A stretch of 64,000 nucleotides of DNA from Saccharothrix sp. S26 (GTDB lineage: Bacteria > Actinomycetota > Actinomycetes > Mycobacteriales > Pseudonocardiaceae). Below, one piece after another: positions 12,311 through 58,000 of the stretch; position 1 is the first letter of the stretch, and each line of letters begins with the position of its first letter. The notes under the pieces are model-generated. The model did no database searches. It had not been told where the DNA came from and saw only the letters and a program-made list of their open reading frames with translations. The translations under genes and the position numbers were made by a program. The DNA lies in NCBI RefSeq assembly GCF_021390395.1, contig NZ_JAJUWT010000004.1, positions 310,001 through 374,000 on the forward strand, read 5' to 3'.

Positions 12311-14947
12311 GTGTCGAAATTGTACGGCCGGGATCGTGAATGGGCTTCGGTTCTCCGCTTCCTGTCCACGCCCGGTGGCCTGCTGGCCATCGACGGCCCG
12401 CCGTGCTCCGGAAAGACCTCCCTGCTGCGCGAGGCGGTCGTCGCCGCCCGCGACCGCGGCCATGCCGTCCTGGTCGTGCCCGGTGGGGAGCTGGCCGCCT
12501 CGCCCGCGGTGGCGCAGGCACTCGATCGGGTGGAGGGCGATCGGGTGCCGCGGCTCGTCGCCGTCGACCAGGCGCACCAGGACCCGGCGGCGCTGGTGGA
12601 GCTGCTGCGGTGGGCGGAGGCGACGGGTGATCCGCTCGTCTCGGTCGTGGTGGCGTTGTGCGGCGACCTCGCCGGCGCCGAGGCGCGGCAGGCGTTGGCG
12701 CGAGGTGAGGTGCTCGCGCTCGGCCCCCTCGACGACGACGCGGTCGCGCGGATGGTCACCGACCTGGTGGACGCGACACCGCACCCGGACCTGCTGGCGT
12801 TCACGGCGGGCGCGGGCGGCAACCCCCGGCTGGTCGTGGAACTCGTCGCCGGGTTGCGCGAAGAAGGACGGCTCGACGTCGTCGACGGCGTGGCCCGGCC
12901 GCGTGGCGGGTGGCTGCCGCGCCGCGTCGGGGTCGTGGTGCGCGGTCAGGTCGAGGCGATGTCGGCCAAGGCGACGCAGGTGCTGCGGGTCGCGGCGGTG
13001 ATCGGCCGGTCGTTCCTGCTGCGGGACGTGGCCGCGATGATGAACGAGACCACCGGCGCGTTGCTGCTCGCCGTGGACGAGGTGCTGGCCTCCGGGCTGG
13101 TGGGGTGCGGCGGCGAGCGGCTGGAGTTCGGGTCGGACCTCGTGTGGCGGGCGGTGGTGGACTCGATGCCCGGTTCGGTGCGGCACGCCCTGCGGCACGA
13201 CGCCGACGTGCTGCGGGCGAGGTCCGCCGAGGTGCGTGGAGCGCCGGCGAGGTCGGTGGAGCGGGTGGAGGAGAGCGGGCAGGAGCCGGGTGCGGTCGGC
13301 GGGCAGGCGCGGGGTGCGGTCGCGGTCGACGGGCAGGAGCAGGGCGCGGTCGCGGTCGGCGCGCAGGAGCAGGGCGCGGTAGCGGTCGGTCGGGTGCGGG
13401 CGTTGGCGGCGAACGGGAAGCTCGGTTCCGCCATCGCGTCGGCCCGGCAGAGCCTGGCGGTCGGCGTGCCCGCCGGCGCGGCCGCGGAGCTGCACGTGGT
13501 GCTGGCCGGGATCCTGCTGGCGGACGGTCGGCCCGCCGACGCGGCGTCCGAGCTGGACCACGTGCTGACCTCGCCGGGCGTGCCCGGGCCGCTGCGCCGG
13601 CTGGCCGGGGCGGGGCGGCTGCTGTCGCTGTACTTCGCCACCGGCAGCCGGGCGGGCGCGCACGCGTTGTCGGTCCTGACGACCCGGGACCGCGAGCCCG
13701 CGGACGCGGACGTGGTGATGGCGGCGACCGTCCATTCCTGCCTGGAATGGAGCGCGGGACGGATCGCCGAGGGCATGTACTGGGGCCGTCAGTCGACCCG
13801 CTGGGAGCTGGACCGGCCGACGGCGTGGTGGCAGTCGCAGTCGGCGGTGTCGTACGCGTTGAAGCTCGCGGCGCTGGGCGAGTTCGAGGCGGCCGAGCGG
13901 TGCGTGCGCGACGGCGTGGAGTGCGACGACGAGGCCGTGCGGGCCGGTGCGCCGACGGCGCGCACGATCGCCCGGGCCAGGGTGCTGGTGCAGGCCGGGA
14001 AGTTGGCGCAGGCGCTGGCGGCCGCGCGGCGCGGGCTGTCGACCGCGCGGGACCGGGGGCTGCGGATCCTGGTGCCGCTCGCGTCGACCGTGGTGGCGAC
14101 GGTGGCGTTGCACCGCGGCGAGGTCGCGGCGGCGGCCGAGCACGTGCGGCGGTACCGGGCCGACCTGGCGGCGGGCGAGGCGGTGCTGCACTCCGGGCAG
14201 TACGACTGGGTGGAGCTGCTGCTCGCGCACGCCCGGGGTGGGGCGGAGCGGGCGGTGGAGCTGGCACGGGACCGGGTGGGCGACGCGGGCGCGGTGCTGC
14301 GGATCCTGATCGAGGAGCCGGGCGCGGCGGCGTGGCTGGTGCGGCAGGCGTTGGCGGCGGGGGACGGCGGGCTGGCGCGGGACGCGGTCGGCGCGGCGGA
14401 GCGGTTGGCCGCGGAGAACCCCGGGTTCGAGGTGGTGTCGGTGGCGGCCGGGCACGCGCGGGCGTTGCTGGACCGGGACGCGCAGCGGTTGCTGGAGGTG
14501 GCGCGGCGGCACCGGCACCCGTGGGCGCAGGCGAACGCGAACGAGGACCTCGCCGCGGTGCTGGCCGAGGCCGGTCACGTGGAGCGGGCTTCGGCGCACA
14601 CGGCGGTGGCGTCGCGGATCTTCGAGCGGATGGGGGCGGAGGGGGAGCTGGCGCGGTTACAGGGGGGTGATGGCGGGGACGGTGGGGGTGAGGCGGGGGT
14701 TGAGGGGTGGCGGGTGTTGTCGCGGGCGGAGCGGGACATCGCCCGGTTGGTGGGGGCGGGGTTGACGAACCGGCAGGTGGCGAAGCAGTTGTTCCTGTCG
14801 CCGCACACGGTGAACTACCACCTGCGCGGGATCTTCCGGAAGCTCGGGATCAGCTCGCGGGTGGAGCTGGCGCGGGTGGCGCACGAGCAAGAGGGGACGC
14901 ACGAGCAGGAGGGGGCGCAGGAAGGCGCCGGCGTGTCCCCCACCTGA
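12311..14947 (+). CDS. large ATP-binding LuxR-type transcriptional regulator
   Basis: This 878-residue regulator has LAL-like layout. An N-terminal ATPase carries Walker A IDGPPCSGKTSLL (near residue 25) and a Walker B-like RLVAVDQ. A long alpha-helical middle follows, and a C-terminal LuxR HTH (LSRAERDIARLVGAGLTNRQ through SPHTVNYHLRGIFRKLGI). Between ATPase and helical part, 13277-13390 is a tandem repeat coding near-identical 10-residue units (GQEQGAVAVG). The tail is Glu/Gln-rich (HEQEG). GTG 12311 is chosen over TTG 12305 because it lies eight bases after a -10 box. The target genes are unknown. Confidence 0.88.
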   Translation: MSKLYGRDREWASVLRFLSTPGGLLAIDGPPCSGKTSLLREAVVAARDRGHAVLVVPGGELAASPAVAQALDRVEGDRVPRLVAVDQAHQDPAALVELLRWAEATGDPLVSVVVALCGDLAGAEARQALARGEVLALGPLDDDAVARMVTDLVDATPHPDLLAFTAGAGGNPRLVVELVAGLREEGRLDVVDGVARPRGGWLPRRVGVVVRGQVEAMSAKATQVLRVAAVIGRSFLLRDVAAMMNETTGALLLAVDEVLASGLVGCGGERLEFGSDLVWRAVVDSMPGSVRHALRHDADVLRARSAEVRGAPARSVERVEESGQEPGAVGGQARGAVAVDGQEQGAVAVGAQEQGAVAVGRVRALAANGKLGSAIASARQSLAVGVPAGAAAELHVVLAGILLADGRPADAASELDHVLTSPGVPGPLRRLAGAGRLLSLYFATGSRAGAHALSVLTTRDREPADADVVMAATVHSCLEWSAGRIAEGMYWGRQSTRWELDRPTAWWQSQSAVSYALKLAALGEFEAAERCVRDGVECDDEAVRAGAPTARTIARARVLVQAGKLAQALAAARRGLSTARDRGLRILVPLASTVVATVALHRGEVAAAAEHVRRYRADLAAGEAVLHSGQYDWVELLLAHARGGAERAVELARDRVGDAGAVLRILIEEPGAAAWLVRQALAAGDGGLARDAVGAAERLAAENPGFEVVSVAAGHARALLDRDAQRLLEVARRHRHPWAQANANEDLAAVLAEAGHVERASAHTAVASRIFERMGAEGELARLQGGDGGDGGGEAGVEGWRVLSRAERDIARLVGAGLTNRQVAKQLFLSPHTVNYHLRGIFRKLGISSRVELARVAHEQEGTHEQEGAQEGAGVSPT
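13277..13390 (+). repeat. in-frame tandem repeat inside the LuxR-type gene
   Basis: One 24-base and three 30-base units, each beginning GGGCAGG or GCGCAGG, encode GQEPGAVG, GQARGAVAVD, GQEQGAVAVG and AQEQGAVAVG. Since every unit length is a multiple of three, copy change would only lengthen a flexible linker. Confidence 0.85.
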
Positions 14948-14960
14948 CCCCCACCTCCCG

Positions 14961-15045
14961 CGCGTGTCCTACCTCCAGAACGCGAGAGTCCTACGTTCAG
15001 AACGCGAGAGTCCTACGTTCGGGACCCCCGAGTTGAACGCTCAGG
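14961..15045 (+). repeat. 22-bp intergenic tandem repeat, locus A
   Basis: Four units follow the LuxR-type gene's stop by 13 bases: 14961-14980, 14981-15002, 15003-15024 and 15025-15045. The core is CGCGAGAGTCCTACGTTCAGAA. Junctions carry GTTCAGAAC, a small palindrome. The last unit differs (CCCCCGAGTTGAACGCTCAGG) and is nearly repeated at locus C. The remaining bases to 15139 are G-rich with no gene seen. Confidence 0.85.
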
Positions 15046-15139
15046 TGCGGTGGGTGCGGGTCCGGGGGGTGTAGGTCCGGGGGAGAGTCCGGCTCGGTGG
15101 GCTGGTTCCCGGTCCGTTGTGGGTGGTGGGTGGCTGTGG

Positions 15140-15778
15140 TCAAGCGCTGACGGCGTTGGGGTGGGGTGTGGGGTCGGTGAGGAGGAACTTGACCTCGTCG
15201 GTGACGCGGTGGGGGTCGGTGGGGGCGACGACGGCGCAGTGGACGCCGTGGGGGGAGACTTCGACGGCCAGGCACTCGGTGTAGGTGATGGCGGCGGCTC
15301 GTGACGCTGCGTAGGCGGCCATTCCCGATCTCGGGACGGCGACCGCGTGGGCCGGGACCATGATGATCGTGCCCCGGGACCGGTCGACCATCCTGGTGGC
15401 GACGGCTCGGGAGATGTTGAACACGCCGTTGACGTTGACGGCGAAGCTGTGCGTCCAGTCGGCGTCGGTGATCGACAGGACCGGGCCCGGGCGCAGGGCG
15501 CTCGCGGTGGCGACCAGGGCGTCGATCGGGCCGAACTCGCGTTCCACCTGGTCCACGAGGGCGTCCACGGCGGCGCTGGACGTGACGTCGATCTGCCTGC
15601 CCGCGATCCGCAGTCCTCGGGCGTGGAGGCGTTCGACCAGGTCGGCGAGTCTCGCGCCGTCGCTGTCGACGGCCACGACCAGCGCCCCCTGCCCGGCCAG
15701 CGACTCGACCACCTCGGCCCCGAGCGGTGAGCACGCCCCGGTGATCAGTGCGATCTTGTGACGGAATTCGGCATTCAT
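15140..15778 (-). CDS. short-chain dehydrogenase homologue, probably catalytically inactive
   Basis: The 212-residue product has the SDR Rossmann fold and resembles 2,3-dihydro-2,3-dihydroxybenzoate dehydrogenases (EntA type), as in FAVNVNGVFNISRAVATRM and MAAYAASRAAA. Key residues are changed: the glycine motif reads TGACSPLG (Pro18 for Gly), the catalytic Ser position is Ala143 (VPAHA), and the lysine of YxxxK is Arg160, though Tyr156 remains. The NNAG motif reads ATAS. It may bind a nucleotide without redox activity. The ATG at 15778 follows GGGGAGC and gives standard domain length. No siderophore genes are adjacent. Confidence 0.8.
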   Translation of the reverse strand: MNAEFRHKIALITGACSPLGAEVVESLAGQGALVVAVDSDGARLADLVERLHARGLRIAGRQIDVTSSAAVDALVDQVEREFGPIDALVATASALRPGPVLSITDADWTHSFAVNVNGVFNISRAVATRMVDRSRGTIIMVPAHAVAVPRSGMAAYAASRAAAITYTECLAVEVSPHGVHCAVVAPTDPHRVTDEVKFLLTDPTPHPNAVSA

Positions 15779-17615: not shown

Positions 17616-20420
<2,805 letters not shown>

Positions 20421-20421
20421 C

Positions 20422-20506
20422 CGCGTGTCCTACCTCCAGAACGCGCGTGTCCTACGTCCAGAACGCGTGAGTCCTACATTCGCGACGCATGACTTCGTCG
20501 TTCGCG
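20422..20506 (+). repeat. 22-bp intergenic tandem repeat, locus B
   Basis: Three clear units (20422-20441, 20442-20463, 20464-20485) and one decayed unit (20486-20506) start one base after the rib operon's last stop. The first unit, CGCGTGTCCTACCTCCAGAA, is identical to the first unit of locus A. The third ends CATTCGCGA. Confidence 0.82.
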
Positions 20507-20524
20507 TAAGCGCTGATCGTCGTG

Positions 20525-25777: not shown

Positions 25778-26191
25778 GTGGACCGACGGACGCTGCTGTG
25801 CGGACTGCTCGCCCTGACGGCCGGGGCAACCGTGACCGCGTGCGGCACGGGTGCCGGGCCGACCCGCCGGCCGGGTGTCGGTTCCGCCCGACCGGGTGAC
25901 CGCGTGGCCGGCCTCGCGGACGTCCCGGTGGGCTCCGGCGCGCTGGTCGACATCGGCGGCGACGGCCAGTTGTTGCTGGTCAGGCCGTCGGAGTCGGAGG
26001 TGCGGGCGTTCAACCCGGCCTGTCCGCACCAGGGCACGACAGTGAACCCGCCCGCGGGCGGCACGATCAGCTGTCCCACGCACCGCTCCGCGTTCGACCC
26101 GGCGACCGGGGCGGTGCTGTCCGGCCCGTCACCGCGGGGGCTGGCGGAAGTCGCGGTGACGGTGTCCGGGCCGGACGTGGTGCTTTCCTGA
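25778..26191 (+). CDS. Rieske [2Fe-2S] lipoprotein 1
   Basis: This 137-residue protein has a twin-arginine start (MDRRTLLCGLLALTAG) ending in a lipobox (TVTAC), so it is probably exported folded and lipid-anchored. The cluster ligands are intact: CPHQG and CPTHRSAFD, the Rieske C-x-H...C-x-x-H arrangement. The GTG at 25778 sits 14 bases after the previous stop. It is about 100 bases from a paralogue. Electron partners are not encoded nearby, so its redox role is unknown. Confidence 0.85.
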   Translation: MDRRTLLCGLLALTAGATVTACGTGAGPTRRPGVGSARPGDRVAGLADVPVGSGALVDIGGDGQLLLVRPSESEVRAFNPACPHQGTTVNPPAGGTISCPTHRSAFDPATGAVLSGPSPRGLAEVAVTVSGPDVVLS

Positions 26192-33790: not shown

Positions 33791-33868
33791 TGCGCGAGTC
33801 CTACGTTCAGAACGCGAGAGTCCTACGCTCAGAACCCCCGAGTTCAACGCTCAGAACGTCACGCTGAG
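33791..33868 (+). repeat. 22-bp intergenic tandem repeat, locus C
   Basis: Units at 33791-33812, 33813-33834 and 33835-33856 are each exactly 22 bases; a decayed one follows to 33868. The first two match CGCGAGAGTCCTACGTTCAGAA closely. The third (CCCCCGAGTTCAACGCTCAGAA) matches the odd last unit of locus A with few changes. The block starts 51 bases upstream of the acyltransferase start. Confidence 0.85.
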
Positions 33869-57980: not shown

Positions 57981-58000
57981 CGCGATGTCCTACGTCAGCA
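57981..58000 (+). repeat. decayed single copy of the 22-bp repeat
   Basis: CGCGATGTCCTACGTCAGCA matches the core unit of the intergenic repeat family (CGCG-GTCCTACGT-CAG) with a few changes. It lies 17 bases upstream of the qor start, in a 71-base gap. A chance match cannot be excluded. Confidence 0.4.

What the first reader, a model, noticed from the sequence alone, without database searches (positions are those of the whole stretch)
14961..15045. A dispersed family of 22-bp tandem repeats in intergenic DNA
Four units here share a core (CGCGAGAGTCCTACGTTCAGAA) with blocks at 20422-20506 and 33791-33868, and a decayed single unit at 57981-58000. Period is 22 bp, close to two DNA helical turns, and GTTCAGAAC, a near-palindrome, recurs at the junctions, so a protein could bind on one face of the DNA. 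A variant unit (CCCCCGAGTTSAACGCTCAG) ends the clear units at two loci, so the blocks have order and direction. The units are always outside genes and on the same strand. It is not a CRISPR array: no spacers. A role as a protein-binding array, a 3'-UTR element or a mobile relic is inference.
Basis: partly seen in the sequence, partly recalled or inferred. Interest (0 to 1): 0.75.

Follow-up and report, generated by a model that had tools for sequence, protein, structure and literature searches.

The report
Helix-phased repeat arrays at gene ends
Hundreds of short DNA repeats, lined up every two turns of the double helix, sit right behind genes in a group of soil actinomycetes; they look like landing strips for an unknown DNA-binding protein, and their spelling differs even between sister species.

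Summary
The three blocks in the window are real. They belong to a genome-wide family: 424 unit matches in 9.08 Mb, 0 for the reversed control. Each block is an ordered 'arm': usually 2-5 units of 22 bp, then a distinct cap unit, last in 190 of 191 arms. Arms mostly begin at stop codons, favour convergent gene pairs, and occur alone or as two inverted arms. The gap between two caps varies in sequence and length, yet centre spacings lie near 10, 21, 31, 42, 53 or 64 bp, multiples of a helical turn. An arm alone has no RNA fold on its sense strand and arms do not co-vary in the home clade. This favours protein on duplex DNA over an RNA hairpin. The same grammar, pitch 21 or 22 bp, recurs patchily in 37 of 390 genomes of the family and 0 of 391 sampled outside it. 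Sister species use different unit 'dialects' genome-wide. No RAYT, Rfam, phage or plasmid match was found. Best reading: a dispersed, mobile-like protein-binding array at gene ends. The protein and its task (insulation or termination) are inferred.

The parts
14945..14947 (+). TGA stop codon of the LuxR-family gene 12311-14947, followed by CCC: the TRACCC boundary that precedes most arms
14962..14983 (+). unit 1, 'first unit' variant (CTACCTCC)
14984..15005 (+). unit 2, exact type-1 core
15006..15027 (+). unit 3, type 1
15028..15049 (+). cap (terminal) unit, core GAGTTGAACGCTCAG
20423..20444 (+). unit 1, 'first unit' variant, 2 nt behind the stop codon of the bPH_6 gene 19971-20420
20445..20466 (+). 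unit 2, type 1
20467..20488 (+). unit 3, type 1 (CATTCGCGAC variant)
20489..20510 (+). decayed cap unit (ATGACTTCGTCGTTCGCG); orthologous G008 reads ATGAGTTCAACGTTCGCG here
   Evidence: by eye
33794..33815 (+). unit 1, exact type-1 core; this arm lies between divergent genes (acyltransferase/SGNH - and GAPDH +)
33816..33837 (+). unit 2, type 1
33838..33859 (+). cap unit, core GAGTTCAACGCTCAG

Best explanation
A dispersed extragenic element whose working part is a double-stranded DNA array for an unidentified sequence-specific protein. Shown: each arm is usually 2-5 units of two helical turns (22 bp here, 21 bp in some other genera) plus one cap unit; arms mostly start at a stop codon and run with the gene; two arms meet cap to cap with their spacing locked to whole helical turns, although the gap sequence varies. 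Inferred: one protein subunit or dimer binds each unit on the same DNA face, the cap ends or anchors the filament, and caps of facing arms touch. A row of bound protein directly behind the stop codon would then act as a roadblock or insulator between converging transcription units. Also inferred: whole elements have been copied to new loci, and their units are homogenised across a genome, so that related species differ in dialect.
For: Genome-wide abundance with reversed-pattern controls of 0 in the home genome; over 61 genomes the control gave 5 single matches. Cap last in 190 of 191 arms. Pitch of only 21 or 22 bp in all 473 neighbouring core pairs at 15-30 bp tallied. Cap-cap spacings of 58 two-arm elements: 40 at 29-33 bp, the other 18 at 10, 21, 40-43, 53-54 and 64; 0 of 20000 random sets as phased. 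After counting related loops once and adding four elements of another genus, all 20 off-mode spacings lie within 2.5 bp of a whole number of turns from the main mode, and 0 of 50000 random sets reach the observed phasing. An arm folded alone shows no RNA structure on the sense strand (mean z -0.42 for 52 arms, 5 below -2). No arm-arm co-variation in the home clade (0.799 against 0.792, sd 0.005, 59 cap-to-cap elements; 0.685 against 0.705 for 19 back-to-back ones). 32 of 44 sense arms start -6 to +15 nt from the stop codon, 10.4 expected. Intergenic regions occupied: convergent 19 of 270, codirectional 16 of 994, divergent 4 of 268.
Against: No binding protein found and none tested. The 22-bp pitch and the main 31-bp spacing could be inherited from one founder, so most of the phasing weight rests on about 20 off-mode cases. 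The unfiltered list also holds spacings of 3 (7), 18 (14) and 25 (1) bp, which I read as artefacts of near-palindromic cores without checking each. The antisense strand of arms is mildly structured (mean z -1.60). In genus g37 three of four elements compared have arms that are perfect inverted repeats over 43-64 bp, which a hairpin model or a recent hairpin-templated copy also explains. Four of 39 occupied intergenic regions, one of them in the window, lie between divergent genes, where a gene-end insulator makes less sense. 17 of 61 arms are not sense to the gene on their start side. Insulation itself is untested.
Confidence: 0.5

Rival explanations
1. Miniature mobile element: the arrays are the binding sites of its own mobilising enzyme, as the 22-bp MuA and TnsB sites are in phage Mu and Tn7 (recalled), and the stop-codon position reflects target choice or survival of harmless insertions. 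No host function.
For: Whole two-arm elements recur at unrelated loci with the same loop: C3:260 kb and C3:277 kb share an identical 19-nt gap, L035 and L075 a gap with one difference. Perfect inverted repeats in three of four g37 elements. Patchy family distribution, 37 of 390 genomes in 10 of 46 genera. TRACCC boundary at the stop codon.
Against: No enzyme found, but the search was partial: of three facing arm pairs within 9 kb in the 1.65-Mb sample, the one with a single gene between them holds a DEAD/Helicase_C_2 helicase, and the genes of the other two were scanned only in part. No Y1 transposase in the genome. No target duplication seen at two informative sites, by eye. Four of ten compared regions are occupied in nearly all bearing species while unit types change.
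Confidence: 0.28
2. Bidirectional transcription terminator or mRNA-stabilising hairpin, working as RNA.
For: Two-arm elements fold strongly (z -5.5 to -23.9 for 13 elements). Some array-free relatives carry plain GC-rich hairpins at the same sites (by eye). Hairpins in the 70 nt after single arms are fewer (6 of 20) than after stops in array-free convergent regions (33 of 60), as if replaced.
Against: An arm folded alone has no structure on the sense strand, and 20 of 52 arms with three or more units were classed as single. No co-variation between arms in the home clade. Gap lengths are locked to helical turns, which a hairpin loop does not need.
Confidence: 0.12
3. Self-recognition tags for DNA exchange, like the DNA uptake sequences of Neisseria, whose dialects also differ between species and which often double as terminators (terminator role recalled).
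For: Genome-wide dialect shift between sister species G000 (424 type 1, 12 type 2) and G022 (44 and 353). Dialects of DUS are described in PMC3630211 (abstract and outline read).
Against: Hundreds of copies, not thousands; long phased arrays rather than single short words; no uptake or transfer receptor examined; both dialects coexist in several species, e.g. G005 192 and 202.
Confidence: 0.06
4. Ordinary tandem-repeat slippage products decaying in free intergenic DNA.
For: Other intergenic tandem repeats with many periods occur in the same genomes.
Against: In the home sample the 22-bp period belongs to this family: 43 of 49 family arrays against 3 of 95 other intergenic repeats. Adjacent middle units are hardly more alike (0.836) than random middle units of the genome (0.820). 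The cap order is fixed and a like grammar is seen in other genera.
Confidence: 0.02

Closest known systems
REP / BIME / REPIN elements with RAYT transposases (PMC3733652: abstract and 12 found passages read)
   Same: Short dispersed extragenic repeats, often inverted pairs with a short gap, mainly between convergent or unidirectional genes, behind coding regions, high copy number.
   Different: The unit is not itself a hairpin; tandem array plus cap; helix-phased gaps; no Y1/RAYT gene in the genome. That paper's main text does not contain the words Saccharothrix, Actinosynnema, Streptomyces or Actinobacteria.
MITEs and transposon ends with tandem 22-bp transposase sites (Mu, Tn7; recalled)
   Same: 22-bp binding-site pitch; inverted arms; insertion next to a stop codon (Tn7 behind glmS).
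   Different: No cargo in the two-arm elements; gap of about 10-60 bp or less; no target duplication seen; arms point cap to cap.
DNA uptake sequences and their dialects (PMC3630211: abstract and outline read)
   Same: High copy number with genome-wide dialects that differ between related species.
   Different: 22-bp multi-unit arrays, hundreds rather than thousands of copies, no known competence receptor link.
MIRU repeats of mycobacteria (recalled)
   Same: Tandem intergenic repeats that meet or overlap the stop codons of neighbours.
   Different: Longer unit (recalled); no cap, inverted arms or helical phasing known to me.
Intrinsic bidirectional terminators
   Same: Position between convergent genes; two-arm forms can fold.
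   Different: An arm alone does not fold; some arms sit beside a separate hairpin (by eye).

Membership tests
REP/REPIN | each repeat is a 20-40 bp palindrome (hairpin) with a GTAG or CGTC tag | tested here: not met
   arms folded alone have mean z -0.42 on the sense strand; the unit is directional. The tag itself was not tested separately
REP/REPIN | RAYT (Y1_Tnp) gene in the genome | tested here: not met
   PF01797: 0 matches in G000; present in 5 of 25 genus genomes, three of them array-bearing and two not
REP/REPIN | inverted pairs, extragenic, mostly behind genes | tested here: met
MITE / Tn7- or Mu-type miniature element | copies of the whole element at unrelated loci | tested here: met
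   two pairs
MITE / Tn7- or Mu-type miniature element | target-site duplication | tested here: inconclusive
   two presence/absence sites read by eye, none seen, flanks diverged
MITE / Tn7- or Mu-type miniature element | related autonomous element with a transposase | tested here: inconclusive
   three facing arm pairs within 9 kb in 1.65 of 9.08 Mb; genes between them scanned only in part, no transposase among those scanned
Intrinsic terminator | stable hairpin in the transcript of each copy | tested here: not met
   two-arm copies fold, arms alone do not
DNA uptake sequence | preferred uptake or transfer of DNA that carries it | not testable with these tools
   needs experiment
CRISPR array | unique spacers between repeats | tested here: not met
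   units abut at 22 bp
Known RNA family | match to an Rfam model | tested here: not met
   0 matches in the window at gathering scores and 0 in 8 array loci at E<=0.1
dsDNA protein-binding array (as a mode of action) | helical phasing of sites | tested here: met
dsDNA protein-binding array (as a mode of action) | a protein that binds it | not testable with these tools
   no candidate identified

The most novel reading that the evidence does not exclude
An undescribed bacterial gene-end insulator: a clade-specific protein forms helix-phased filaments on capped repeat arrays behind stop codons, bridges two filaments across convergent gene ends, and co-evolves with its sites so fast that sister species carry different genome-wide dialects, possibly also serving as self-recognition tags.
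Probability: 0.2. Interest if true: 0.87.

Novelty: new variant of a known kind. Interest (0 to 1): 0.64.

Why it matters
Dispersed repeats in bacteria are usually read as hairpins or transposon remnants. Here the geometry argues for a protein on duplex DNA at hundreds of gene ends. The patchy distribution over related genomes, the fixed grammar and the dialect shifts give a natural experiment: a protein, an enzyme or a gene set whose presence tracks the arrays can be looked for in genomes that already exist, and the insulator idea can be tested with simple reporters. It also offers a tractable bacterial case of genome-wide concerted evolution of hundreds of dispersed repeat arrays.

Tried and rejected
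REPIN/RAYT: rejected as membership, no Y1 transposase. RNA element: Rfam empty, arms alone unfolded on the sense strand. Arm-arm mirror pairing in the home clade: I expected it from the type strings (for example G001, 2-1-1-cap / cap-1-1-2), but at base level it equals within-species shuffles; it is strong only in genus g37 (three of four elements). A master element with a transposase between facing arms: not found, partial search. Phage or plasmid origin: three exact patterns against viral contigs and one 85-base query against the plasmid and phage collections, no match. A functional theme of the neighbours: 36 of the 79 genes next to arrays in the sample (list) were scanned with Pfam, hits of many kinds, 3 without a hit, no theme seen (6, 10 each; the other 3 proteins lay by the rejected 57981 site). 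An outgroup 19-bp repeat in G011 as a relative: only one locus. Empty-site comparison in genus g37: the nearest relative G080 is occupied at the same site, others too diverged. Literature: searches for the unit letters, Saccharothrix with repeats, Actinosynnema, Pseudonocardia and Amycolatopsis gave no paper on it; one search listed three papers that by title concern other subjects. The library lacks most subscription journals.

Limits. Genes were called by my own codon-model script, not by a published caller. Only 1.65 Mb of 9.08 Mb of the home genome was read base by base. Of 73 arrays called, 11 with a best unit score under 24 were dropped; 7 of these lie inside genes, and the reversed control gives 3 hits at score 12, so a few of the dropped ones may be real (one belongs to a back-to-back element). 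One 'gene end' counted as array-bearing (B,26) is a conserved false hit. One search looked only at spacings of 15-74 bp and listed 63: two at 18 bp are artefacts of the type-2 core, and six rows come from three elements with overlapping caps, entered as 10 bp; 58 were tested. In one search an element of L283, whose inner units escaped the core pattern, was left out. The type-1 and type-2 searches used different cut-offs (3 and 2 mismatches). The tree lacks G012 and G019. Many readings of orthologous sites are by eye.

Full report
Observation. The blocks at 14961, 20422 and 33791 are present as described. In the window the core occurs seven times at up to 3 mismatches, and never in 100 shuffles. 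The end variant occurs twice. The proposed single unit at 57981-58000 is not supported. In the whole genome, unnamed, 9.08 Mb in 54 contigs, the core has 233 forward and 191 reverse matches at <=3 mismatches, with 0 for the reversed control; the end variant has 152 at <=2 mismatches, control 0. An exact scan of one genome per species for a two-unit pattern returned 52 stretches, all from four Saccharothrix genomes (the window's own genome may be left out there).

Anatomy. I read 1.65 Mb of the genome (contigs 1-3, the first 140 kb of contig 4, and the window), called genes with a codon model and scanned with a weight matrix whose reversed control gives 0 hits at score 14 against 209. 73 arrays were called, 62 strong. 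Each array ('arm') is a run of units of 22 bp: 638 of 649 same-strand neighbours. The consensus is GAGAGTCCTACGTTCAGAACGC; the first unit has CTAC followed by C rather than G in 18 of 52; the last is a cap, CCGAGTTCAACGCTCAG. The cap is last in 190 of 191 arms that contain one, pooled over the loci then in use. Arms occur singly, as two arms cap to cap (form A), or back to back with starts inside (form B, the same 2-bp junction in 17 of 19).

Place. 61 of 62 strong arrays lie between genes: 19 of 270 convergent, 16 of 994 codirectional and 4 of 268 divergent intergenic regions are occupied. 44 of 61 run with the gene whose stop codon lies on their start side, and 32 of these 44 start within -6 to +15 nt of the stop, 10.4 expected under uniform placing. 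At -4 the stop codon TGA is part of the unit (CGTGAGTCC). For arms 2-16 nt behind a stop the codon is TGA 16, TAA 10, TAG 0 of 26, against 686, 46 and 182 of 914 for stops without an arm; CC follows in 25 of 26 against 0.25. In relatives CC follows in 0.69 of 54 stops with an arm, in 0.43 of 56 at the same sites without, in 0.42 of 80 in the non-bearing species and in 0.10-0.17 elsewhere. So the element reaches to the stop codon, with a bias of the sites as well. Neighbouring genes are ordinary and varied, such as FtsZ, GAPDH, a DHH phosphoesterase and a histidine kinase (36 of 79 scanned).

Duplex DNA or RNA. In form A the gap between caps varies in sequence and length. The distance between cap centres in 58 elements is 10, 21, 29-33 (40 elements), 40-43, 53-54 or 64 bp, none in between (how the 58 were reached is told under limits, and the unfiltered list has 22 further values at 3, 18 and 25 bp that I take for artefacts). 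The 18 values outside the main mode are phased with a period near 10.7 bp; none of 20000 random sets reaches this. With related loops counted once and four elements of genus g37 added, all 20 stay within 2.5 bp of a whole number of turns and 0 of 50000 random sets reach the observed phasing. A hairpin loop needs no such lock; proteins on one face of a helix do. An arm folded alone has no RNA structure beyond shuffles on its sense strand (mean z -0.42, 52 arms; antisense -1.60), while two-arm elements fold trivially (z -5.5 to -23.9, 13 elements). Base-level mirror identity of the two arms is 0.799 against 0.792 (sd 0.005) for arms exchanged within a species (59 elements), so pairing of the two arms is not maintained in this clade. 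Against this, in genus g37 the arms are perfect inverted repeats over 43, 52 and 64 bp in three of four elements, which suggests young copies or copying through a hairpin.

Evolution. Of 25 genomes of the genus a group of 11 species (branch support 1.000 in a tree of 23 genomes) bears the arrays in high number; G021 bears them in its own dialects and G007/G024 in low number; the other 11 have none to two matches per pattern. In two regions compared with 20 relatives each, ten orthologous intergenic regions carry an array in at least one species: four are occupied in nearly all bearing species compared (10-11 of 11-12), one in 6 of 9, the other five in one to four; unit number, unit type, orientation and form differ between species at the same place. 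Array-free species have short gaps there, plain GC-rich hairpins or unrelated sequence (by eye). Genome-wide the unit type shifts: home genome 424 type 1 and 12 type 2, its sister G022 (94% and 91% DNA identity over two 5-kb stretches) 44 and 353, G008 456 and 4, G015 362 and 116, G005 192 and 202 (cut-offs of 3 and 2 mismatches). Adjacent middle units of an arm are hardly more alike than random middle units of the genome, 0.836 against 0.820, so local duplication does not explain the likeness. Where an arm mixes types, all type 2 lie nearer the stop in 12 of 17 arms and all type 1 in 4. Whole two-arm elements have been copied: C3:260 kb and C3:277 kb share an identical 19-nt gap in opposite orientation, and the likeness ends at the stop codons; L035 and L075 share their gap but for one base.

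Beyond the genus. Other genera of the family carry a like grammar. G027 has GTGTCCGACGTTCAGGACGCT units of 21 bp; G033 has 21-bp units with a GAGTTCG unit last; G065/G080 have GAGTCCAACGTTC and GAGTTCCACGTTC units (partly by eye). A family-wide search allowing pitches of 19-24 bp found 37 of 390 genomes in 10 of 46 genera, control 0; among 394 genomes drawn from the class, of which 3 belong to the family, only the home genome matched. Over the loci tallied, neighbouring cores at 15-30 bp stand 21 or 22 bp apart in all 473 pairs. The search sees one dialect only, so true spread is underestimated.

What it is. The fixed pitch of two turns, the phased gaps, the directional order with a cap and the lack of RNA fold in arms alone make a protein-binding array on duplex DNA the best reading. 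Position behind stop codons, between convergent genes, suggests a barrier or insulator, but this step is inference. Copying of whole elements, patchy spread and dialects show that it is also, or has been, mobile-like; whether by an enzyme of its own, through recombination, or by exchange of DNA between cells is open. On checking I found that the search for an enzyme between facing arms was only partial and that fewer orthologous regions are held than I first wrote, so the mobile rival was raised from 0.25 to 0.28. No Y1/RAYT gene is present, nothing was found in Rfam, viral contigs, plasmids or phages, and I found no paper on it. The closest described kind is the BIME/REPIN class, which shares placement and inverted pairing (PMC3733652, abstract and passages) but fails on the palindromic unit and the RAYT. 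The genome-wide dialects resemble those of DNA uptake sequences (PMC3630211, abstract and outline); the 22-bp transposase sites of Mu and Tn7 are recalled, not looked up.

Noticed in passing
L173 (G001), about 14200-15200: An insertion sequence with a DDE_Tnp_4 transposase sits inside an array at the orthologue of window 20423, apparently between two CTA triplets of a unit.
   Followed up: partly
L184 to L190 and L207 to L213 (array-free relatives): Several array-free sister species carry unrelated intergenic tandem repeats of many periods (10-49 bp), some long, e.g. in G010, G011 and G016. G009 has a 22/44-bp repeat of unrelated sequence.
   Followed up: no
L204 (G015), 162-343 of the piece oriented as: A 22/44-bp tandem repeat (CCGACCCCACACCGGAGCCGCGCGAACATCGCGCTGGGGCCGGG) unlike the unit of this family.
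   Followed up: no
window 25843-25895: A 24-bp tandem repeat of 2.1 copies between genes, unrelated to the family.
   Followed up: no
G000:C3:336043 and C3:161679: The gap between caps holds its own GC-rich inverted repeat, so the two arms flank what looks like a shared bidirectional terminator (by eye).
   Followed up: partly
L276-L281 (G145): Long, degenerate 21-bp arrays with many diverged units around a few good ones, a different style from the short capped arms.
   Followed up: no
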